A stretch of 64,000 nucleotides of DNA, taken from positions 6,685,001-6,749,000 of the forward strand of contig NZ_CP107996.1 in assembly GCF_036088315.1 (NCBI RefSeq), written 5' to 3'. The notes under the pieces are model-generated. The model was given only the letters and a program-made list of their open reading frames with translations, did no database searches and was not told where the DNA came from. The stretch is from Streptomyces sp. NBC_00344 (GTDB lineage: Bacteria > Actinomycetota > Actinomycetes > Streptomycetales > Streptomycetaceae). This document shows, in pieces, positions 1 through 9,839 of this stretch. The position numbers and the translations under genes were made by a program. Within the stretch, counting starts at the first letter, position 1; the number at the start of each line of letters is the position of its first letter.

Positions 1-121
1 TGATCGAGCCTGCGAAGTTGAAGCCCTCGCACTTGAGGAAGAGGGAGTGCCCGATGACCGACCGGAGATCGACATAGAGATCTTCTTCGTTGAAAGCGTA
101 GGGCACGGATATGACTGACAC
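1..121 (-). CDS. sbnA: SbnA-like 2,3-diaminopropionate synthase, N-terminal part only
   Basis: Partial gene that runs off the left edge; only the first 40 codons are visible. Reading leftward from a GTG at 121, the frame contains YAFNEEDLYVDL and then LFLKCEGFNFAGSI, the typical N-terminus of SbnA-type enzymes (cysteine synthase fold). The PLP-binding lysine that normally follows GSI would lie just outside the window. SbnA joins O-phospho-L-serine and L-glutamate to give N-(1-amino-1-carboxy-2-ethyl)-glutamate, the substrate of SbnB, whose gene lies immediately upstream. A Shine-Dalgarno (GAGGAG) sits about 6 bases before the GTG and fixes the start. It is the last gene visible in the operon, 197 bases after sbnB. 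Confidence 0.85.
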   Translation of the reverse strand, partial: MSVISVPYAFNEEDLYVDLRSVIGHSLFLKCEGFNFAGSI

Positions 122-318: not shown

Positions 319-1386
319 TCACCCGTACCTGCGCAGTTCATGGAAGAAGCTGTCGACGACCCGCAGATCGCCCGATCGGTTCACCTCGTCGTAGACGTAC
401 TTGCCGACCGCAAGGTCGAGCACACCGAGGCCGAACGGGGAGAAAACGGCGGTACGGTCCGCCGGCACGCTCACCCGGTCGGCCATCACATCGTCCAGCG
501 TTCCGTGCAGGAACTCCCGGCTGCCCGTCAGCTGCTCGGTCAGCTGGGTGGAGGTGGCGGCTCGCAGACAATGCTCGATGTCGTCGACGATGTTGGTCGA
601 GGCGAGCAGAATCTCCGGCGCGAGGTCACGCAGCGATACATGCAGTACCACCGGGTGGTGGTCGAACCAGGAGACATCACTGACATGCGGCTGCGGGGCG
701 ACCGTGGCGAAAACCACCAGATCACTGCAGCGGATCAGCTCCTCAGGGCTGTCGTGCACGGTGATCTGCCCGGCGGCACCCGACTGTTCCAGGTACAGCC
801 GGAAGCCGGCCGCGCTTTCGGCGGACAGGTCGTGCACGCCGATCTCGTCGAACGACCAGCCGGTGCCTTCCAGGAACGTGTGGATGTAGCGGGCGATCAG
901 ACCTGCCCCGAAGAACCCGACGCGCGTCGGGCGAGGGCGGCCACGACTGAGCCGGTCGGCCGCCGAGGCCGCTGACGCGGCCGTCCTGGTGGCGCTGATG
1001 ATCGAGCTCTCCAGGCAGGCGAACGGATAGCCGGTGAGGTGGTCGTTGAGGATGAGCACGGCCGAGGCCCTGGGGATGCCGGATGCCACGTTCGGCGGGA
1101 AGCTGGAGATCCACTTCACTCCGTCCACCTGCGCCGTTCCGCCGATCGAGGCGGGCAGCGCGATGATCCGGGACGACGGACGGTCGGTGAAGCGCAGGAA
1201 GGAGGACGGCGGGTTCACCGACTCACCGGAGCCGTGGAGCTGATAGGTGGCCTCGACCACCTCCACGATCTCCTTTTCCCTTCCGTCCAGGGCTTTCCGG
1301 ACCTGGACTCCCGGGATCACCGCGAAGGACGGCACGGCGGGCGGTTCGGGCAGTGCCGACCGCGCTGCGGCGGGGGCGGTAGTCAT
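319..1386 (-). CDS. sbnB: SbnB-like dehydrogenase of 2,3-diaminopropionate synthesis
   Basis: 355 aa, the usual size of SbnB and the ornithine cyclodeaminase/mu-crystallin superfamily. SbnB oxidises the SbnA product with NAD+ to release L-2,3-diaminopropionate, 2-oxoglutarate and NADH. The substrate-site signature GVKWISSFPPNV (about residues 90-101) and the Rossmann dinucleotide motif GFFGAGLIARYI (about residues 155-166) are both clear. Its start ATG overlaps the stop of the upstream dioxygenase gene (ATGA at 1383-1386), indicating translational coupling. With SbnA next in the operon, this marks a dedicated Dap supply for a natural product rather than general metabolism. In Staphylococcus the pair serves staphyloferrin B; in actinomycetes it serves Dap-containing peptides. 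Confidence 0.93.
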   Translation of the reverse strand: MTTAPAAARSALPEPPAVPSFAVIPGVQVRKALDGREKEIVEVVEATYQLHGSGESVNPPSSFLRFTDRPSSRIIALPASIGGTAQVDGVKWISSFPPNVASGIPRASAVLILNDHLTGYPFACLESSIISATRTAASAASAADRLSRGRPRPTRVGFFGAGLIARYIHTFLEGTGWSFDEIGVHDLSAESAAGFRLYLEQSGAAGQITVHDSPEELIRCSDLVVFATVAPQPHVSDVSWFDHHPVVLHVSLRDLAPEILLASTNIVDDIEHCLRAATSTQLTEQLTGSREFLHGTLDDVMADRVSVPADRTAVFSPFGLGVLDLAVGKYVYDEVNRSGDLRVVDSFFHELRRYG

Positions 1387-2387
1387 GAGAATGTCACCTC
1401 ACGTGTGGGTGAGCAGTCGGTCAGCCGCACCGGATCCGCCAAGGCCACGACCACGTCGCGCGGCCCCGCGAAGGGCTCCCTGCTGTGCGCGGTACGGACG
1501 TTGTCGACCAGCAGAAGGTCACCGGCCTCCCAAGGGTGGCGGGTGGTGTTGGCTTCGTATGCCTCATTGATCAGGCGCACGACGTCCTCGGTGAGGGGGT
1601 CGCCGTTTCCGTAACGCGTATTGAACGGCAGGCCGTCGGGACCGTACTCGTCGATCAGGTACTCCCGCACCTCGGGATCCATCGTCCACTCGTTGAGAAA
1701 GGCGATCTGGTTGAACCAGCAGGGCCGGCCACTGGCCGGATGGTGGACCACTGCGCTGCGACGCTGTCCGGTGCGCAGGCCGCCGACCGGATTCCAGGTA
1801 CATTCGATGGCGTTGGCACGGCAGTAGCGCTCAACGGCTTCCGGATCACTGGTCCCGAAGGCCTGATCCAACGACGCACCGATCTCGTCGTGGTAACTGC
1901 GGGTCAGCAACCAGCCCTCCCGCGCGAACCGTTCGGTCAGGGGCGGCGGCAGGGCGTCGAGTACGGCCGTCGAGTCGGCCACTGCGGTAGCCCCGCCCTC
2001 GGTGGGCGCACCGAGACACGCGAACAGCATGAGGCCGGGAAACTCCAGCGCGTAACTCAGCTCGTGATGCATACACATCGGCTGGTTCGGAGGCCACTTC
2101 GACGAGGAGTACACGCCGTCGGAGTAGACCGCCCGGGGGGCGAAGGCCTCCCGCTCGGCCACTGGAGTGACACCCAACTCCCGGAGTACGGCGGCGACAT
2201 CCGCCGGAGCACGCACCCCGAGGCCGCGGACCAGGACCGACCCGTGCTCGGCGACGGCCGCGCGCAGCGCGTCCCGGTTACCGGCCGTCCAGCGCGCCGG
2301 GTCGTCGGTGGCGCCGACCCGCAGTACCGGAGGTTTGCCGTGGTCCGTATCGAGTTCGGTTGCTGCGATGTGAAGTGAGGCCAACAT
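1383..2387 (-). CDS. SyrP/TauD-family Fe(II)/2-oxoglutarate dioxygenase
   Basis: 334 aa cytoplasmic non-haem iron enzyme of the TauD/clavaminate synthase superfamily. The segment MCMHHELSYALEFPG followed by LFACLGAP is very close to SyrP, which beta-hydroxylates aspartate tethered to an NRPS carrier. His and Glu of H-H-E-L-S supply two of the iron ligands; the distal His and 2-oxoglutarate Arg are probably in TAHSREPF and GPRD near the C-terminus. I chose the ATG at 2387 (preceded by GAGGAAG) because the reading frame further upstream has no protein character and overlaps the NRPS gene. It starts 13 bases after the NRPS stop and overlaps sbnB by 4 bases. The likely substrate is a carrier-bound amino acid, possibly Dap; this is inference. 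Confidence 0.88.
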   Translation of the reverse strand: MLASLHIAATELDTDHGKPPVLRVGATDDPARWTAGNRDALRAAVAEHGSVLVRGLGVRAPADVAAVLRELGVTPVAEREAFAPRAVYSDGVYSSSKWPPNQPMCMHHELSYALEFPGLMLFACLGAPTEGGATAVADSTAVLDALPPPLTERFAREGWLLTRSYHDEIGASLDQAFGTSDPEAVERYCRANAIECTWNPVGGLRTGQRRSAVVHHPASGRPCWFNQIAFLNEWTMDPEVREYLIDEYGPDGLPFNTRYGNGDPLTEDVVRLINEAYEANTTRHPWEAGDLLLVDNVRTAHSREPFAGPRDVVVALADPVRLTDCSPTREVTFS

Positions 2388-2400
2388 CGTGCTCTTCCTC

Positions 2401-5400
2401 TCAGTGGTGGTGGCTGTGGCAGCTGCCGGATGGGGAGCCGGACAGCACGATCTGTGCGACGTCCTGGGTGCAGTTCCGGAGGAAGGACCGGCCGCCGCCG
2501 GCCAGTTCGTGGAGGTCGACGCTGTTCGCCGCCACCTGCCGCTCGTGGTGATGTCGTGGGAAGTCCGCTGTGTGTGGGGCACCGGCCGAGACGACCACGG
2601 TGAGCGGGGCCGACAACTGCACGGCCAGTGGGGTGTCCAGCGCGTCATCGAGCAGCTGTGCGCCCAGGAACACCCGCCGGACATCCACCCCGCGCTCTTC
2701 CAGCCGCCTGGCAGTTGCCACAGCGAACGGCATCCCCGCGGACTGGCCCCACAGCCGGAGCCCGGTCAGACCGAGGCCGATGATCTCCTCTGCGATCTGT
2801 TCGGCGACGAGTGCGGGCGTTTCATCCGCCCCGGCCGTGCCGGGGCCGGGAAGCACTACCGCGTAGAGTGCGGGCCCGCTGCCGTGCAGTGCCCTGGCCA
2901 GGGTTTCGAAGTCATCCGTGTTTCCTTCGCCGCTGGGGAAGCACACCAGGGAACCTGCCTGCGCGCCGCCCGGCTCCGACAACGGACGGAGCAGTCCCGA
3001 GCGATGCTCGGACCCACCGTCGATCAGACCGGCGAGATCGGAGAGGATCGGGTGCCGGGCAACGTCCGTGACAGAGACCAGACGCCCCAGGTCAATCGCG
3101 AGCTTGACGGCTGACAGCGAGGTGCCACCCAGGCCGAAGAAGTCGTCCTGACGGCCTATCCGGTCCTGCGGGACGCCGAGAACCCCGGACCAGGCCGCGG
3201 CCAGCCGCCGCTCGGTGGGTGTGCGCGGTGCGCGGTAGCGTTCCTCGGTCGCTTCGAGTCGCGCCGCCAGTGCTCCCAGCGCCTTCCTGTCGGTCTTGCC
3301 GTTGGCGGTGAGCGGAAGCGCCTCCCGCCGGACGACGACCGAAGGGACCATGTACTCCGGCAGCGACTCACCCAGCTGGGAGCGAAGTTCATCGCCGTCG
3401 AGCAGGTCAGGGCCGCAGCAGAAGGCGACCAGACGTGTGCTGTGCCCCGCCCGCTGGTCGACCACCACGGCACCGTCGTGGACTCCGGGCAGGCGCGCCA
3501 GGGCGCTTTCGATCTCGCCGGTCTCGATGCGGAATCCCCGGATCTTCACCTGGCCGTCCCGACGGCCGAGGTATTCCAGCTTTCCCTCCGGGCGCCAGCG
3601 TCCGTAGTCGCCTCCCCGGAAGAGCCGCTGCCCGGGGTGGTGCGGATCAGGCAGGAAGGACTGCCGAGTGCGCTCGGGATCGTTGATGTAGCCGCGCCCG
3701 ACGCAGACCCCCGAGAAGACAATGGTCCCGGGGGCGCCGAGCGGCACCGGTGTCAGGTGTTCGTCGACGACGTAGACGTGCACATTGTTGACGGGCCGGC
3801 CGAGCGGAACCCGTCCGGCGTCCGGTGCCCGGTCCATGACCTCGTGGTTGGTGTCGTCCGATGTCTCGGTCAGTCCATAGGCGTTGACCAGCCCGACCCC
3901 GGGCTGGACCGCGAACCAGCGCCGGGCCAGTTCGGTGCTCAGTGCCTCGCCGGTTACCGACACGCGCCGCAGGTCCGGCAGTTCGCGGGGGGATTGCTCC
4001 AGGCAGGACACGAAAACTTCGAGGTAGGACGGGACCAGCTGGAGCACGGCGGCCCGGCCATCGGTGATGGTGTCGAGGAAGCGCCGCACGTCCAGCACCG
4101 CAGCCTGTTCGACCAGCAGGGTCCGGCCGCCGGTAAGCAGTGCGGACAGCAGCTGCCACAGCGAGATGTCGAAGCATTGGGGAGCGGTCTGGGCGACCAC
4201 CTGCCCCTCCTGGATCCCGAGGTCGTCGATCTTGGCGTAGAGGTGGTTGAGCATGCCCGCGTGCTCGCACATCGCGCCCTTGGGCTCACCCGTGGAACCG
4301 GAGGTGAAATAGATGTAGGCGATCTGGTCGGGTGCGACGCCGAGACCGGGGTCGCCGTCATGGTGGTCCTCCCGGCAGAGGGCGTCGATGAAGAGCGTCC
4401 GGGCTCCCGGTACCGAGTCGAGGGCCCGGTCGAGGCAGGCGGTGCTGCCGGGTTCGGTCAGCACAGTGCGGCACGCAGCACGCGCCAGCATGGTGGCGAT
4501 GCGGTCGGCGGGGAAATGCGGCTCGACGGGCAGGTACACGCCACCGGCCTTGAGGACGGCGATGACCGCGGCCATCCACTCCAGGTTGCGCTCGGTGACG
4601 ACCGCGACGACGTCCTGGCGGCGCAGCCCTCGTGCGAGCAGGGCGTGTGCCAGCCGGTTGGCGCGCATATTGAGTTCCCGGTACGTCCACTGCCGGTCCC
4701 CGTGGACGGCCGCGACGGCGTCCGGGTGAGCCCGCACTCGCTGTTCGAACAGCTCGTGGAACCGGCGGTCGGGCAGTTCCCGGTGCGGTCCGGCCATTCC
4801 TTCGAGCTGGTACCGGAGCTCCTCGGCGGAGAGCAGGGTCTGCTGCCCGTGCATGGCATCCGGATCGGCGGCGATGAGTGTCAGCGCTGTGACGTAGTAG
4901 CCACCGATTCTCGCGGCGCATTCCGCGTCGAGCGCATCCGCCCGGTACCGCAGTCGCAGTACACCGCGGGGGGAAAGTGCCACCCGCAGTACCGGGTTCC
5001 CCGGGCGATGGTCGTCATCGGCCATATCGCACACGGTCTCGGGGGACTCGTCCGCCGGCTCCTGCCCGGGGGCGCCGGTGGGCAGATCCTGGCGCGCCAG
5101 AACTTCTGCCTCGGCACGGTGCACGTCCAGCAGCAGGGCCCGCCATGAGCCGGACGCGGTCGCCAGCCGGCAACGCAACGGCGCGCCGCCTCGCGCAGGG
5201 ACGTAGCCGGTGGTGACCTCGCTCTCCCCGGACAGCGCGGCAAGCACCTTGGCGTGAGCAGTCAGCAGCATCGAACTCAGGGGAACCTGAAGCCAGTCCG
5301 CCAGCCGGCGAAGGGTGACCAGCACGCGGTCGGGCAGAGCCGTCTCGTGCTCTGCGGTACCGGGCGCCGGGGCACGGGTCCAGCGCGGGATCCTGGTGAA

Positions 5401-5460
5401 GGCGCTCTCGACGAGTACGCCGTGCCGGTTGTCGCCATTGGCCTTCAGGGACGTGTTCAT
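2401..5460 (-). CDS. NRPS: half condensation domain, adenylation, carrier, thioesterase
   Basis: 1019 aa. Residues 1 to about 215 resemble only the acceptor half of a condensation domain; no HHxxxDG motif is present. The adenylation domain spans about 230-735 (YFTSGSTGEPKG, NAYGLTET, GDYGRW, NGKTDRKAL). The carrier motif GLGGTSLS puts the phosphopantetheine serine at about 781, and the thioesterase motif LWGQSAG puts its nucleophile at about 907. By hand alignment to GrsA the ten specificity residues read D-I-W-Q-S-T-A-D-D-K; two acids at 330/331 suit an amino-bearing side chain such as Dap, but I could not match the code. The usual thioesterase GGHFF histidine region reads GGGRSFL, so the catalytic His may be missing. 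The start overlaps the upstream stop (ATGA), so translation is coupled. Confidence 0.93.
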   Translation of the reverse strand: MNTSLKANGDNRHGVLVESAFTRIPRWTRAPAPGTAEHETALPDRVLVTLRRLADWLQVPLSSMLLTAHAKVLAALSGESEVTTGYVPARGGAPLRCRLATASGSWRALLLDVHRAEAEVLARQDLPTGAPGQEPADESPETVCDMADDDHRPGNPVLRVALSPRGVLRLRYRADALDAECAARIGGYYVTALTLIAADPDAMHGQQTLLSAEELRYQLEGMAGPHRELPDRRFHELFEQRVRAHPDAVAAVHGDRQWTYRELNMRANRLAHALLARGLRRQDVVAVVTERNLEWMAAVIAVLKAGGVYLPVEPHFPADRIATMLARAACRTVLTEPGSTACLDRALDSVPGARTLFIDALCREDHHDGDPGLGVAPDQIAYIYFTSGSTGEPKGAMCEHAGMLNHLYAKIDDLGIQEGQVVAQTAPQCFDISLWQLLSALLTGGRTLLVEQAAVLDVRRFLDTITDGRAAVLQLVPSYLEVFVSCLEQSPRELPDLRRVSVTGEALSTELARRWFAVQPGVGLVNAYGLTETSDDTNHEVMDRAPDAGRVPLGRPVNNVHVYVVDEHLTPVPLGAPGTIVFSGVCVGRGYINDPERTRQSFLPDPHHPGQRLFRGGDYGRWRPEGKLEYLGRRDGQVKIRGFRIETGEIESALARLPGVHDGAVVVDQRAGHSTRLVAFCCGPDLLDGDELRSQLGESLPEYMVPSVVVRREALPLTANGKTDRKALGALAARLEATEERYRAPRTPTERRLAAAWSGVLGVPQDRIGRQDDFFGLGGTSLSAVKLAIDLGRLVSVTDVARHPILSDLAGLIDGGSEHRSGLLRPLSEPGGAQAGSLVCFPSGEGNTDDFETLARALHGSGPALYAVVLPGPGTAGADETPALVAEQIAEEIIGLGLTGLRLWGQSAGMPFAVATARRLEERGVDVRRVFLGAQLLDDALDTPLAVQLSAPLTVVVSAGAPHTADFPRHHHERQVAANSVDLHELAGGGRSFLRNCTQDVAQIVLSGSPSGSCHSHHH

Positions 5461-7982
5461 GGCTGCCTCCTTTCCTCACGGGCATCTCCGCGCATCGTCT
5501 GCCGGGCCGGGTTCCCACCCCACTCCACGTGCGGCGGAACGACCTCGCCCTTCATCAGGAAGGAATCCGGTGCGAGGACGGCACCGTCACCCATGGCGAC
5601 GCCGTAATGCACGAAGGCCCCGACCCCGAGCGTGCATCCGTCGGCGATCGTGGTGCGGTCGGACTTGAAGGTGCCGTCTTCCTGGGAATGGGTCTGCACT
5701 ACGCTTCCCGCGTTGAGAGTGCAGCCGTCGCCAATGGCTACCAGCGTCCGCTCGGTCAGGTAGCAGCCGTCGTCGAAGACCCTGCTGCCGATCCGGACGC
5801 CCAGCAGCCGCCAGATGATGCTCTTGAACGGGGTGCCGTTGAAGATTCGCAGGTATGCCTCCGAAGGCACCTTCCAGAAGCGTTCCCGCCTCCAGAAGCG
5901 CGGATCGTAGATCGAGCAGAACAGCGGAGTCAGGGGATGGAACACGGTCACACCGCGTTCGACCAGTACGAAGAACACGGTTCCGGTCGCAACGACCAGG
6001 ACATTGCCCAGCGCGATCGCCCCTGCCCCGAGCGTTTCGTAGAGGTCAGCGGCGACGGCGATGAGCAGCGTGACCCAGAAGAAGTAGAACCAGCGCACCA
6101 GCAGGTAGAGCCCCGCGGTTGCCGCGTTGTGCCTGTTCTTGGCTGCGAGGTGGCCGCTCAACTGATCGCCGCTCTTCAGCGGGTCGAAGGCGCCGTCCCG
6201 CAGGACCGAGCGCGGGATTTCGAAGCTGGGTGAGCCCAGGAGCCCGACGTTTTCACGGACTGCCCCGTCGACGGGGACCATGACCTTCGTCGCGAGGAGA
6301 CAGTTGTCACCCGTTCTGCCCCGTGAGGGATAGGCGATCCTGTTCCCGAGGAAGTTGCGGGGTCCGATCGACGTCCGGGACACGCGAAACGACGTGTTCG
6401 AAAAGTCGGCGTTCATGACCGACAGCCCGTCGGCGACCATCGTGCCGCTCCCGACGGAACTCAGGTACGGGGTCTCGTGTTTCACCTCGGTGCCGAAGTT
6501 CGATCCGGTCTGCTCGATCCGGGACAGGTCGTACCCGAGGCAGCGGAGGTAGTGGACGATGCCGGAACTGTCACCGAAAAGGCGCGTCAGGAAACGGCGG
6601 TTGGTCACGAGCGCGATCACCCGGTGCACCCCGTGGTGGAAGCCGTACAGCGGGTACACCTTGCCCGGCGCGATGGTCCGGCTGAGCAGGCGGGGAACGC
6701 TCGCCACGAGAAGCAGGCCCACAGGTACGGCGGCCAGGAAGAGCAGGGACACCGCGAGGGTGTCGGCGTAGAAGCTCCAGGTCGCGAGGGCCGCAGAGCC
6801 CGGTTGAAGGACTGTGGTGAGCTGGGGGGCCTCGGCCAGCAGCAGGCCCACGCCGCCGACTGCCAGCGGCACGTAGAGGAGCAGCACGGTCAGGAGCTCC
6901 AGGAAGCTGTGCCCCGCCCTCCTCAGGGCTCCACAGGCGGCGGGCTCCACAGTCCGGTAGTCCACATCGGTCCGCTGCGCCGGTGACCCGTGCCAGTGTT
7001 CACCGGCCGGCACCGCCTGCCCGCTGTGCAGCGATGAGGCATGGCCGAGCTGGGCCCGGTCGCCGAGCGAACTCCCGACGTCCAGGACGGTGGCCTCGCT
7101 GATGATCACGTCCTTGCCCAGGGTCACCGCACCGGTCTGGATCAAGCCGGCCCGGGCCCGGTAGCAGTTGAAGAAGGAGTCCTTGCGGATGACGGTGCCC
7201 GCGCCGACGGTGAGCAGATCGGTGCACACAGGCACATTGCGCGAGAAGACCGCGACGCCGGACCCGATTTTCGCGCCGAGGGCCCGGAGGTAGAGCGTGT
7301 AGAGAGGCGAACCGACGAACAGGACAAGCGGGTCCGATCGGATCAGTGTCCTGACGACCCAGAAGCGGACGTACGACAGGCTCCAGACGCGGATCTGCTG
7401 GGGCTTCCAGCGTCCGATGAGGGCCCATTTGGCCAGGACGGGAAGGAAGCACAGTACTGCGAGGGCAACGGCTCCGAAGAGGACCGACCGCAGATACACG
7501 TCGAGGACACCGGAACCGGCGGAGATCCAGTCGTACCCCCGGGCGCTGATGAGAGCGACGAGGTACGCGTACCCGAGGAACATCAGCAGCTGAAGCGTCC
7601 CGCACAGGACGTACTCGGTTCTGGAGGTCGCGACAGGCGTCGGTGCGGCGGTCGGCGCTCCGGACGGGACTGTTGGAGAGGTGTCCGACACGGCGGCCGC
7701 GAGGGCTCCGATCGTCGGGTGCCGGTAGATGTCCTTCATCGAAACCGGCGGCAGACCGGTGTGCTTCCTGACCCGCGCGCAGAAATGCGCCATCACCAGG
7801 GAGTCGGCGCCGAGATCGTCGAAGAAGTGACCTTCGACCGGTACTTGTTCCACACCGATGACGTCCGCCAGCAGCGCGGCGAGGCGTTCTTCGAGACCGG
7901 TTTCCGGGGCACCTGCTCCGCACCGGCCGGCGGGGGATGCCGGCGGATGCGAGGTCAGTGCTGCGACTGGCTTTCCACGCAT
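5457..7982 (-). CDS. Pls-like membrane polymerase without adenylation domain
   Basis: 841 aa integral membrane protein, first gene of the visible operon. Residues about 28-100 are a peptidyl carrier domain with the attachment serine in DDLGADSLV (Ser61). Six hydrophobic segments follow in pairs, separated by three blocks rich in hexapeptide-like turns (for example GAKIGSGVAVFSRNVPV, and GDGCTLNAGSVVQTHS near the C-terminus). This is the order seen in poly-epsilon-lysine synthetase Pls (A-T-TM-C1-TM-C2-TM-C3), but the roughly 450-residue adenylation domain is absent, which accounts for the length difference from Pls (about 1319 aa). I chose the ATG at 7982 because AGGGAG lies about 5 bases before it. 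The missing activation could be supplied by the co-translated NRPS. It may polymerise Dap at the membrane; this is inference from the family. Confidence 0.85.
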   Translation of the reverse strand: MRGKPVAALTSHPPASPAGRCGAGAPETGLEERLAALLADVIGVEQVPVEGHFFDDLGADSLVMAHFCARVRKHTGLPPVSMKDIYRHPTIGALAAAVSDTSPTVPSGAPTAAPTPVATSRTEYVLCGTLQLLMFLGYAYLVALISARGYDWISAGSGVLDVYLRSVLFGAVALAVLCFLPVLAKWALIGRWKPQQIRVWSLSYVRFWVVRTLIRSDPLVLFVGSPLYTLYLRALGAKIGSGVAVFSRNVPVCTDLLTVGAGTVIRKDSFFNCYRARAGLIQTGAVTLGKDVIISEATVLDVGSSLGDRAQLGHASSLHSGQAVPAGEHWHGSPAQRTDVDYRTVEPAACGALRRAGHSFLELLTVLLLYVPLAVGGVGLLLAEAPQLTTVLQPGSAALATWSFYADTLAVSLLFLAAVPVGLLLVASVPRLLSRTIAPGKVYPLYGFHHGVHRVIALVTNRRFLTRLFGDSSGIVHYLRCLGYDLSRIEQTGSNFGTEVKHETPYLSSVGSGTMVADGLSVMNADFSNTSFRVSRTSIGPRNFLGNRIAYPSRGRTGDNCLLATKVMVPVDGAVRENVGLLGSPSFEIPRSVLRDGAFDPLKSGDQLSGHLAAKNRHNAATAGLYLLVRWFYFFWVTLLIAVAADLYETLGAGAIALGNVLVVATGTVFFVLVERGVTVFHPLTPLFCSIYDPRFWRRERFWKVPSEAYLRIFNGTPFKSIIWRLLGVRIGSRVFDDGCYLTERTLVAIGDGCTLNAGSVVQTHSQEDGTFKSDRTTIADGCTLGVGAFVHYGVAMGDGAVLAPDSFLMKGEVVPPHVEWGGNPARQTMRGDAREERRQP

Positions 7983-8550
7983 GCGAACTCCCTGGAGAAG
8001 ATGCGACCACCGTCCTTGCGCCCCTGCGGATTCAGATCCGGTGAGCGCTCGTCGTGCCACACGGCAGTCCTGACGTGTATTCGATGCTCACAGCGGCCTG
8101 GATTGAAGACAGCGGATTTATCTCATATTTCGGATTTGTCTTCCAAGGGGTGGACAATGCTGAGACCGGTACCCGGAGCGCCCCTTCGCCCGGCATCGAT
8201 GGCACGGGGGAGTGTGCGGGCGTGAGGGACGGGCGTGTGGCCACCGATGGCTGAGCGGAGCCCCCGAACCGAGTGGCTCCACCGTCCCGTGTGAGACGTG
8301 GGACGTTCGTCTGCCCGTGGGGCCCTGCTGCGGCCCTGTCTGTGCCCGGGGTGGACTGCTCAGCCGAACGGACCCTGCCCGGCTGCGAGCTCCGAGGTGG
8401 GCCAGCAACCTGGGAGACACGCCTGCCGGCCGGCAGCGCATCTCGTCGCACGCGGGCTCCGAGCCGCGGGGCTGCACCATCGAGGATCGGACGGTTCGAC
8501 ACGTTGTGAGGCGGAGGTCGCACGCGGAACGCGAGAGGCACCAGCCGCGG
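7983..8550. promoter_or_regulatory. divergent intergenic region with AT-rich promoter zone
   Basis: 568 bases between the leftward Dap/NRPS operon and the rightward sigK-like gene. The only AT-rich stretch is about 8111-8150. It holds a direct repeat CGGATTT at 8113-8119 and 8131-8137 (18 bp apart). On the leftward strand it also has TTGGAA about 17 bases before AGATAA, a plausible promoter for the operon. Bases 8160-8550 show no convincing gene and no clear sigma factor promoter. Confidence 0.4.
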
Positions 8551-9111
8551 ATGAGGTCCGACGTGGACCGGCGCGTGGACAGCCTGCTCGTCCAGGCCGC
8601 CCGCGGCGACCAGAAGGCGTTCGCCGGCGTGTACGACGCACTCACCGGGCCGGTCATGGGGCTGGCACGCCGGATCCTGCTCGACGAGGCGCAGGCGGAG
8701 GAGGTGACCCAGGACGTGATGATCGAGGTGTGGCGGACAGCCGACCGGTTCCGTCCCGAGCGCGGCGCCGCGAAGTCGTGGGTCCTGACTCTGGCCCACC
8801 GCAGGGCGGTGGAACGGGTGAGGTCCGCACAGGCCGGCGCGGAACGTGAACGAAAGGCCGCACTCCTGAACGCCCCGACCCCGTTCGACGAAGTATCGGA
8901 AGCCGTCACAGGACGGGAGGAGCGGGCCCGGGTGCACCGCTGCCTCGCCGACCTGGGGAAGCACCATCGTCTGCCGCTGGTGCTCGCCTATTACCAGGGG
9001 CTGACCTGCGCGGAGGTCGCCGCAGCCTTGTCCACACCTGCGGGCACGGTGAAATCGCGTATGCGTTCAGGGCTGCGGAAACTGCGTGCCTGTCTGGAGG
9101 CCGCTCAATGA
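8551..9111 (+). CDS. sigK: ECF sigma factor, SigK type
   Basis: 186 aa RNA polymerase sigma factor of the extracytoplasmic-function class. Region 2 is visible as ARRILLDEAQAEEVTQDVMIEVWR and region 4 as LAYYQGLTCAEVAAAL with TPAGTVKSRM (helix-turn-helix). The spacing and the motif LTLAHRRAVERVRS match SigK of mycobacteria. The ATG at 8551 begins MRSDVDRRVDSLL; the open frame upstream is not protein-like. The gene overlaps the anti-sigma gene by ATGA at 9108-9111, the usual arrangement for a sigma/anti-sigma pair, and is probably autoregulated. The signal it answers to cannot be read from the sequence; SigK/RskA pairs in relatives respond to redox or envelope stress. Confidence 0.9.
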   Translation: MRSDVDRRVDSLLVQAARGDQKAFAGVYDALTGPVMGLARRILLDEAQAEEVTQDVMIEVWRTADRFRPERGAAKSWVLTLAHRRAVERVRSAQAGAERERKAALLNAPTPFDEVSEAVTGREERARVHRCLADLGKHHRLPLVLAYYQGLTCAEVAAALSTPAGTVKSRMRSGLRKLRACLEAAQ

Positions 9112-9839
9112 CGGCAGCCGAGGAAGCGCACCTGGCCATCGGCGCGTATGTCCTGCATGCCCTTGCCCCCGAGGAGGAAGCTGCCTTCGAGAACCACCTG
9201 GCCGGCTGTGACGCCTGCACACGGGAGGTCGCCGATCTGGAGACCACCGCAGCACGCCTGGCTGCCGCAGAAGCGGTGACCCCGCCGGCCGCTCTGCGGC
9301 AGAGGGTCCTCGAGCGGATCGCGGTGACTGGCCAGGAGCAGCAGTTCCGGCGCTCGCGGGACCCGAACCCGGGAACAAGATGGGTCCTGGCCGCCTGTCT
9401 GGCAATGGCGGTCGCACTCGGCGCCACCACGGTCTGGCAGCACGAGGAGGCCAACGACGCCCGCGCCCGAGCTGCGGAAGCCGAGACGGACGCCGCAGCC
9501 CTCACCGATGTGCTCGCGGCGCCGGACGCGACGATCAGGGCCCAGCAGCTGGGAGACGGCGCCACCGCCCGCGTCGTCGCTTCCCGCGCCCAGGACCGGG
9601 CGGTCTTCAGTGCCGCCGGCCTGCCCCGCCTCACACGCGGCCGGGTCTACGAACTCTGGTACGCCGAGGCCGGCCGGCTGCGCCCGGCCGGCCTGCTGCC
9701 CGGCAGTGGCGGCCATCGCACCTATGTGATGGACGGCGAGCTCGGCGACGCCACGGGGGTGGGCATCACTGTGGAACCGGACGGAGGGTCCGGCCGGCCC
9801 ACCACCAGACCTCTGGGACTCATCCCGATCCAGGCGTAG
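9108..9839 (+). CDS. rskA: RskA-family membrane anti-sigma factor
   Basis: 243 aa. An N-terminal zinc-finger-like anti-sigma domain contains HLAGCDAC (H-x3-C-x2-C, about residues 38-45), which binds the sigma factor in the cytoplasm. One membrane segment (WVLAACLAMAVALGATTVW, about 88-106) is followed by an outer RskA domain with GRVYELWY and a conserved C-terminal GPxG-like region. It should hold the SigK-like protein inactive until the outer domain is cleaved or altered. It is co-translated with the sigma gene. The hairpin at 9869-9901 probably ends this transcript. Confidence 0.9.
   Translation: MTAAEEAHLAIGAYVLHALAPEEEAAFENHLAGCDACTREVADLETTAARLAAAEAVTPPAALRQRVLERIAVTGQEQQFRRSRDPNPGTRWVLAACLAMAVALGATTVWQHEEANDARARAAEAETDAAALTDVLAAPDATIRAQQLGDGATARVVASRAQDRAVFSAAGLPRLTRGRVYELWYAEAGRLRPAGLLPGSGGHRTYVMDGELGDATGVGITVEPDGGSGRPTTRPLGLIPIQA

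What the first reader, a model, noticed from the sequence alone, without database searches (positions are those of the whole stretch)
5457..7982. Pls-type membrane polymerase that lacks its adenylation domain
Carrier domain, six membrane segments and three acyltransferase-like blocks match the C-terminal two thirds of poly-epsilon-lysine synthetase, but the adenylation domain is missing and the next co-translated gene carries one. A split, trans-loaded homopoly(amino acid) synthetase would be a new architecture.
Basis: partly seen in the sequence, partly recalled or inferred. Interest (0 to 1): 0.75.

Follow-up and report, generated by a model that had tools for sequence, protein, structure and literature searches.

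The report
Split, trans-loaded diamino-acid polymerase cassette
Many actinobacteria carry a polylysine-synthetase-like membrane enzyme that has lost its own amino-acid-activating domain and appears to be fed by a separate partner protein in a conserved five-gene cassette that also makes the likely building block, diaminopropionate; this is a new arrangement of a known kind of enzyme, and its product is unknown.

Summary
Confirmed, on the minus strand. The 841-aa protein is a carrier (T) domain plus a complete Pls/PosA polymerisation domain (TIGR02353, 749.8 bits, cut-off 423.1) without an adenylation (A) domain; the next gene, overlapping by ATGA, encodes A-T plus a decayed TE. No frameshift: 120 of 127 judgeable relatives have no A domain. 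The cassette is wider than reported: T-Pls, A-T(-TE), TauD-type oxygenase, SbnB, SbnA (the last two make L-2,3-diaminopropionate, Dap). Of 123 A-less genes (three cut short by contig ends), 104 have the A-T gene linked on the same strand and 18 of the other 19 have it elsewhere in the genome; one does not. None of three relatives with an intact A domain has it. Pseudonocardia intermediates keep a dead A domain beside the cassette; carriers have multiplied in several lineages. The A code is nearly constant (DIWQSTADDK, 99 of 109). Most likely this is a split synthetase of (possibly oxidised) Dap oligomers whose carrier is loaded in trans. Loading, oxidation and product are inferred; trans-loading of Dap has a published precedent (CmnA/CmnI). 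New variant of a known kind.

The parts
5457..7982 (-). A-less Pls/PosA-type membrane polymerase (T-Pls_C), 841 aa
   Evidence: ORF and ATG; PF00550; TIGR02353 749.8 bits, full length; AF2 model
7689..7889 (-). carrier (T) domain, residues 32-98; Ser61 invariant in the alignment used
   Evidence: PF00550 44.7 bits; S61 invariant in a 35-row alignment
5505..7607 (-). Pls_C polymerisation region, residues 126-826: three repeats of TM pair plus beta-helix-like block
   Evidence: TIGR02353; AF2; hexapeptide acyltransferase matches; 57 positions shared by A-less, A-bearing and one-chain forms, among them Q763, H765, E768, K773
2401..5460 (-). partner NRPS, 1019 aa: N-terminal segment without a Pfam match, then A, T and a decayed TE; overlaps the polymerase stop by ATGA
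3295..4749 (-). adenylation domain, code DIWQSTADDK read by alignment
   Evidence: PF00501/PF13193; same code in 99 of 109 partners
3022..3207 (-). the partner's own carrier domain; Ser present in 109 of 109 partners
   Evidence: PF00550
2461..2949 (-). thioesterase remnant: GxSxG kept, the usual Asp and His missing (end approximate)
   Evidence: PF00975 positions 3-99 of 226; alignment of 61 TE-bearing partners
1383..2387 (-). TauD/clavaminate-synthase-like Fe(II)/2-oxoglutarate oxygenase, 334 aa
   Evidence: PF02668 160.5 bits; HHE and a later His conserved in over 95% of 107 rows
319..1386 (-). SbnB-type 2,3-diaminopropionate biosynthesis protein, 355 aa
   Evidence: TIGR03944 397 bits, cut-off 326.9
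1..121 (-). start of the SbnA-type 2,3-diaminopropionate biosynthesis protein; runs off the window (whole gene L078:16066-17121, 351 aa)
   Evidence: TIGR03945 385.5 bits, cut-off 349.95

Best explanation
The locus is a split, trans-loaded synthetase for an oligomer or polymer of L-2,3-diaminopropionate (Dap) or a Dap derivative. SbnA and SbnB make L-Dap (inferred from family membership). The separate A-T protein adenylates it and loads its own carrier (inferred from intact motifs and a nearly constant diamino-acid-like code). The same A domain then charges the carrier domain(s) of the A-less membrane protein, either directly or after the Fe(II)/2OG oxygenase has acted on the tethered residue (inferred). 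The six-TM, three-block region forms isopeptide bonds iteratively, as in one-chain Pls/PosA (inferred from full-length homology). Shown by sequence: the split, its conservation, the decay of the original A domain in intermediates, the multiplication of carriers, and the near-perfect co-occurrence of the two halves. Not shown: loading, oxidation, product.
For: (1) Complementarity: 122 of 123 A-less genes have the A-T partner in the genome, 104 of them linked on the same strand; without three genes cut by contig ends it is 119 of 120. 0 of 3 relatives with an intact A domain have it at E 1e-150. Counted by hand, 35 of 36 family genomes with an A-less Pls and 21 of 213 others hold the partner (Fisher p 8e-27). 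(2) Fossils: four Pseudonocardia loci (L138, L143, L148, L178) keep an A domain in the polymerase chain beside the cassette. In these and four further proteins of this kind, whose neighbours were not seen, the P-loop Lys is lost in 7 of 7 readable cases and the A10 Lys is lost or the segment missing in 8 of 8; both are intact in all 13 partner, 10 A-bearing and 9 one-chain A domains compared. Dead A domains group with the Pls A lineage; partner A domains form a separate branch, 100/100. Elsewhere no Pls-type A remnant lies upstream: 8 hits in 129 upstream pieces, namely the 3 intact, the 4 dead and a second partner copy at L117. (3) Carriers multiply in A-less forms: 8 ORFs with two, 7 with three (two of them with partial hits) and 2 with four T domains; one protein has six T-like repeats, four with Ser. 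(4) Substrate: SbnA and SbnB above cut-off; code DIWQSTADDK in 99 of 109. A published survey gives DVWQMIGDDK for beta-OH-Dab and finds Dap and Dab codes alike (PMC12283262, passages). (5) Related A-T genes with TauD but without Pls sit beside A-less C-T units in six of 20 fetched loci, one of them partial (L226, L231, L233, L236, L238, L239). (6) Precedent: CmnA-A1 loads L-Dap in trans onto A-less CmnI (PMC12400406, abstract and passages).
Against: No product, transcript or loading experiment is available. One genome (G237, locus L047) has the A-less gene, TauD, SbnB and SbnA but no close A-T gene (none at E 1e-150; best remaining hits about 40% identical). The partner keeps its own carrier in all 109 cases, so it may build something itself. 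Three loci (L136, L137, L169) pair the polymerase and TauD with a different ligase (TIGR03098 in the two scanned), and L136 has a separate carrier-like protein, although their genomes also hold the A-T gene. Of the six Pls-free loci in point 5, only L233 has close SbnA and SbnB genes, and three (L231, L238, L239) have the deviating code DIWQATCDDK, so they are a looser parallel. The closest A-bearing clade includes two proteins fused to an aminotransferase named diaminobutyrate--2-oxoglutarate aminotransferase by their source (P0220, P0227), so its substrate may be Dab. The code is a weak predictor between Dap and Dab.
Confidence: 0.7

Rival explanations
1. The A-T protein and the oxygenase make a small Dap-derived molecule of their own, and the A-less Pls-type protein uses that product differently, for example as an acyltransferase, exporter or capping enzyme rather than a polymerase.
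For: The partner keeps its own carrier (109 of 109) and often a TE (61 of 109). Similar A-T/TauD units, some with SbnB and SbnA, exist in genomes without an A-less Pls. The blocks resemble small acyltransferases.
Against: The A-less protein keeps a carrier domain and multiplies carriers in several lineages, which makes most sense if they are loaded; 57 positions of the polymerisation region are shared with one-chain Pls; the TE is missing in about 46 of 109 partners and decayed in this window.
Confidence: 0.17
2. An ordinary one-chain Pls gene broken by a frameshift or a local deletion, or a dead relic.
For: Dead A domains do occur in some relatives.
Against: Among the 120 listed best hits (one is the window's own protein) none has an intact A3 motif and 95 are shorter than 900 aa. 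No A remnant lies in the 2.5 kb upstream in the window or in 121 of 129 upstream pieces. The gene has its own ATG with a plausible ribosome site by eye.
Confidence: 0.02
3. The TE-type domain, not the A domain, moves Dap from the partner's carrier to the polymerase (an aminoacyl-shuttle arrangement like SyrC or CmaE; recalled, not from a call).
For: 61 of 109 partners carry a TE region with a largely conserved GHSSG, Asp and GGH.
Against: About 46 of 109 partners lack it and this window's copy has lost Asp and His.
Confidence: 0.08

Closest known systems
One-chain homopoly(amino acid) synthetases: Pls (epsilon-polylysine), PDAPs (poly-Dap, S. albulus PD-1, PMC4668381), PosA (delta-polyornithine, PMC10522769)
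   Same: T domain plus TIGR02353-type region with TM helices and three repeated blocks; small diamino-acid substrates; for PDAPs the same proposed monomer and the same kind of Dap supply (NjxA/NjxB, homologues of cysteine synthase and ornithine cyclodeaminase)
   Different: Those carry the A domain in the same chain (PDAPs: one ORF of 4,338 bp); in S. albulus the Dap genes are not near the synthetase. Here A is a separate co-translated A-T protein, with an oxygenase. One-chain Pls of the sampled family are only about 30% identical to the window protein.
Capreomycin/viomycin trans-A system (CmnA-A1 loading A-less CmnI with L-Dap; PMC12400406, passages)
   Same: An A domain charges an A-less carrier on another protein with L-Dap
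   Different: CmnI is a T-C module of a normal assembly line, not a membrane polymerase; no TauD enzyme at that step is described in the passages read
SyrB1/SyrB2-type dedicated A-T protein with an Fe(II)/2OG enzyme acting on the tethered amino acid, delivered to an A-less module (recalled, no call)
   Same: A-T protein, 2OG enzyme and an A-less acceptor carrier
   Different: SyrB2 is a halogenase (recalled); here the conserved HxE motif points to a hydroxylase or desaturase, and the acceptor is a polymerase
Streptothricin ORF19/ORF18 (stand-alone A domain making oligo-beta-lysine; PMC9606270, passages)
   Same: Oligo(diamino acid) made with separate A and carrier proteins
   Different: There the stand-alone A domain mediates chain growth; no membrane polymerisation domain is mentioned in the passages

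Membership tests
Pls/PosA family by NCBI model TIGR02353 | C-terminal region scores above the curated cut-off over the whole model | tested here: met
   749.8 against 423.1 bits, profile 1-695/695
Pls/PosA family by NCBI model TIGR02353 | six TM helices in three pairs with three beta-helix blocks | tested here: met
   AF2 model against the published description; block matches
One-chain homopoly(amino acid) synthetases (Pls, PDAPs, PosA) | N-terminal A domain in the same chain | tested here: not met
   no A domain by Pfam/NCBIfam, no remnant upstream; 120 of 127 judgeable relatives without one
One-chain homopoly(amino acid) synthetases (Pls, PDAPs, PosA) | carrier domain before the polymerisation region | tested here: met
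   PF00550 32-98, Ser61
One-chain homopoly(amino acid) synthetases (Pls, PDAPs, PosA) | makes an isopeptide homopolymer | not testable with these tools
   no product data; 57 positions shared across A-less, A-bearing and one-chain forms
SbnA/SbnB diaminopropionate pathway | both proteins above the equivalog cut-offs | tested here: met
   TIGR03944 397 against 326.9; TIGR03945 385.5 against 349.95
Trans-loading A / A-less carrier systems | A domain on one protein, A-less carrier on another, found together | tested here: met
   122 of 123 A-less genes with the partner in the genome, one exception L047
Trans-loading A / A-less carrier systems | measured transfer to the A-less carrier | not testable with these tools
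   needs in vitro loading
TauD-type Fe(II)/2OG oxygenase | metal-binding HxD/E...H | tested here: met
   PF02668; HHE and a later His over 95% conserved in 107 rows

The most novel reading that the evidence does not exclude
A new class of homopoly(amino acid) synthetase in which the monomer is modified before polymerisation: Dap is bound to the dedicated A-T protein, oxidised there by the TauD-type enzyme, then passed in trans to one or several carriers of an A-less membrane polymerase, giving a poly(oxidised Dap) not yet described in the papers seen here. The one-chain A domain was lost because the monomer now needs an off-polymerase carrier. The oxygenase stays beside the polymerase even in four loci where the A-T gene is not next to it (L047, L136, L137, L169).
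Probability: 0.35. Interest if true: 0.82.

Novelty: new variant of a known kind. Interest (0 to 1): 0.66.

Why it matters
Only a handful of homopoly(amino acid)s are known, and the membrane synthetases described in the papers seen here are one-chain enzymes. The held survey of such enzymes built its similarity network from proteins of 1100-1800 residues (PMC10522769, passage), so A-less forms of about 850 residues would have been left out of it. A common (36 of 249 sampled genomes of the window's family), conserved, split version, with tandem carriers in some lineages, makes two open questions testable: how the polymerisation region takes monomers, since carrier and A domain can now be varied separately, and whether monomers can be tailored before polymerisation. 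It also suggests mixing A-T proteins and polymerases in the laboratory.

Tried and rejected
Frameshift or artefact: rejected by the survey. The published S. albulus PDAP synthetase as the same thing: rejected, it is one chain (PMC4668381, parts 1-3 of 5 read); whether NjxA/NjxB of that strain belong to a cassette like this one was not tested. TE as obligatory shuttle: disfavoured. A residue before the carrier Ser (ADS against ANS) as a mark of trans-loading: no clean split. Literature: the listings of searches showed no paper on an A-less Pls. Only titles and abstract starts were seen, one search listed 15 of 166 papers, and only open-licence papers are held, so such a paper could exist. Foldseek and VIA-align listed no solved Pls; only single blocks matched, which does not exclude other folds. 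The viral library gave one match at E 0.001 or better, a phage acetyltransferase.

Limits: the 'family' searches scored at most the three best candidates per genome. Rows dropped: Pls hits of 400 bits or less, which removes one-chain Pls and a contig-end piece (L119); two duplicate loci (L180, L170) were merged; one partner alignment row without a stop codon in the contig and others under 700 bits were left out of the 109. Three of the 123 (L117, L156, L161; both Modestobacter loci are among them) are cut before or inside the carrier, so absence of A cannot be judged there. Gene calls were heuristic and sometimes chose the wrong strand; counts rest on tblastn. The SbnA query was in a wrong frame and was replaced. 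The tree used the quick method.
Full report

THE CASSETTE. The next gene (5460-2401) overlaps by ATGA and encodes an N-terminal segment without a Pfam match, an A domain, a T domain and a partial TE. It is followed by a TauD-type oxygenase (2387-1383), SbnB (1386-319; TIGR03944, 397 bits, cut-off 326.9) and SbnA, which runs off the window (whole gene in L078; TIGR03945, 385.5 bits, cut-off 349.95). SbnA and SbnB together make L-2,3-diaminopropionate in Staphylococcus aureus (as stated in PMC4668381, part 2).

IT IS A LARGE FAMILY, NOT AN ACCIDENT. Of the 120 listed best protein relatives (of 5084; one is the window's own protein), 95 are shorter than 900 aa and none has an intact A3 motif. In 249 sampled genomes of the window's family, 48 have a match: 36 carry the A-less type (56% identity or more, no A domain), 2 carry an A-bearing form at 54-55%, and 10 only one-chain Pls at about 30% (A status). 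A named scan adds Pseudonocardia, Kibdelosporangium, Geodermatophilus, Blastococcus, Amycolatopsis, Kutzneria, Actinoplanes, Actinacidiphila, Arthrobacter and Kocuria, and Modestobacter with two cut genes. A tblastn control with a Pls-type A domain on the 2.5 kb upstream gave 8 hits in 129 pieces: the 3 intact and 4 dead A domains and a second partner copy at L117; none in the window.

THE TWO HALVES GO TOGETHER. Over 130 unique ORFs scoring above 400 bits, 123 show no A domain (three of them cut, so not judgeable), 4 have a dead one, 3 an intact one. Of the 123, 104 have the A-T gene in the same locus on the same strand, median 101 bases between match ends. Of the other 19, 13 have no cassette gene nearby, 3 have another ligase beside TauD, 2 are limited by contig ends or breaks (L116, L118), and 1 (L047) lacks the A-T gene. 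The A-T gene is present elsewhere in the genome for 18 of these 19; the exception is L047 (genome G237). The three relatives with an intact A domain (L076, L077, L142) have no such A-T gene at E 1e-150. Per genome, counted by hand, 35 of 36 with an A-less gene and 21 of 213 without have the A-T gene (p 8e-27). Of these 21, 18 have matches of 49-62% identity, which belong to other clusters (below), and 3 (G050, G076, G207) only 42-45%.

HOW IT AROSE. In four Pseudonocardia loci (L138, L143, L148, L178) the polymerase still carries an A domain, followed by two carriers, with the cassette beside it. These A domains and those of four similar proteins have lost the A3 lysine (7 of 7 readable) and the A10 lysine or its segment (8 of 8); both are present in the 13 partner, 10 A-bearing and 9 one-chain A domains compared. 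In the A-domain tree the dead domains form one group (100/99), next to the intact A domain of Phytohabitans flavus L142 (weak, 83/63), within the Pls lineage; the partner A domains are a separate branch (100/100). In the tree of the polymerisation region, 15 A-bearing rows form a clade (support 87), L142 is unresolved, and the 8 dead-A rows need three label changes among A-less rows. So the original A domain was probably replaced by an unrelated A-T protein and then decayed, perhaps more than once. Carriers multiplied in A-less forms: 8 ORFs with two, 7 with three (L116 and L137 with partial hits) and 2 with four T domains, and one protein with six T-like repeats, four of them with Ser.

SUBSTRATE AND CHEMISTRY. 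The A-domain code read by alignment is DIWQSTADDK in 99 of 109 partners, DIWQSTTDDK in 9 and DIWQCTADDK in 1, so one substrate is likely throughout. A published compilation gives DVWQMIGDDK for beta-hydroxy-Dab and notes that Dap and Dab codes are alike (PMC12283262, passages). The carrier Ser of the partner is kept in 109 of 109; the TE is missing in about 46 of 109 and in the window has lost Asp and His. The oxygenase keeps its HxE and a later His in over 95% of 107 rows. It is present in 100 of the 104 loci with a linked A-T gene; three of the four without it (L133, L160, L161) end within 2.8 kb of the polymerase, leaving L066.

WIDER CONTEXT. Related A-T proteins (47-62% identical) occur in genomes without an A-less Pls and in one genome with one (G128). 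Of 20 such loci fetched, 18 have a TauD relative, 9 of these also an SbnB relative (one only a short match, L226), and 8 a close SbnA (63% or more); 17 have code DIWQSTADDK and 3 DIWQATCDDK. Six of the 20 have an A-less C-T unit next door: L226, L231, L233, L236 (partial), L238, L239 (L233 also by Pfam). Only L233 of these six has close SbnA and SbnB, and L231, L238 and L239 are the three with the deviating code. So the A-T/TauD pair may be a portable supplier for A-less carriers, with the polymerase as one customer, but this parallel is looser than the Pls survey. Loading of L-Dap in trans onto an A-less carrier is reported for CmnA-A1 and CmnI (PMC12400406, passages).

JUDGEMENT. Split architecture and partnership: about 0.9. 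Direct loading of the polymerase carrier by the partner A domain: about 0.65. Dap-based isopeptide product: about 0.6. Oxidation of the monomer before polymerisation: about 0.35. It works like a Pls, but the one-chain synthetases are defined by an A domain in cis, which was tested and is absent; hence 'new variant of a known kind'.

Noticed in passing
P0038 / L130:10001-13741 (Pseudonocardia nigra): A-less polymerase with three carriers and, after an extra hydrophobic stretch (by eye), two C-terminal peptidoglycan-binding domains (PF01471), hinting at a cell-wall link.
   Followed up: partly
P0111: Six tandem T-like repeats before the polymerisation region; the first two lack the serine.
   Followed up: partly
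L136, L137, L169 downstream of the polymerase: Variant locus: polymerase, TauD, then a stand-alone ligase (scanned in L137 and L169: TIGR03098, 759 bits) and in L136 a carrier-like protein, with no A-T gene next door.
   Followed up: partly
P0220, P0227: One-chain A-T-Pls with an extra PF00202 aminotransferase domain (C-terminal in P0220), named diaminobutyrate aminotransferase by the source; Dab may be the substrate of that sister clade.
   Followed up: no
L047 (G237): A-less polymerase with TauD, SbnB and SbnA but no close A-T gene in a genome listed as 100% complete.
   Followed up: yes
L220, L221, L227, L228, L230, L233, L235: A-T/TauD/SbnB/SbnA unit without a Pls gene; L221, L227 and L233 hold ordinary NRPS genes next door.
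   Followed up: partly
L053, L055, L079, L085 and others: Orphan A-less polymerase copies without cassette genes nearby, in genomes that have the A-T gene elsewhere; neighbours were only looked at by eye.
   Followed up: partly
window 8212-9839, plus strand: Divergent pair that reads, by eye, like an ECF sigma factor and its anti-sigma factor just upstream of the cassette.
   Followed up: no
L191:13126-21765: Orphan A-less polymerase next to a 2,879-aa ORF whose start resembles an AMP-dependent ligase (by eye and a weak tblastn match).
   Followed up: no
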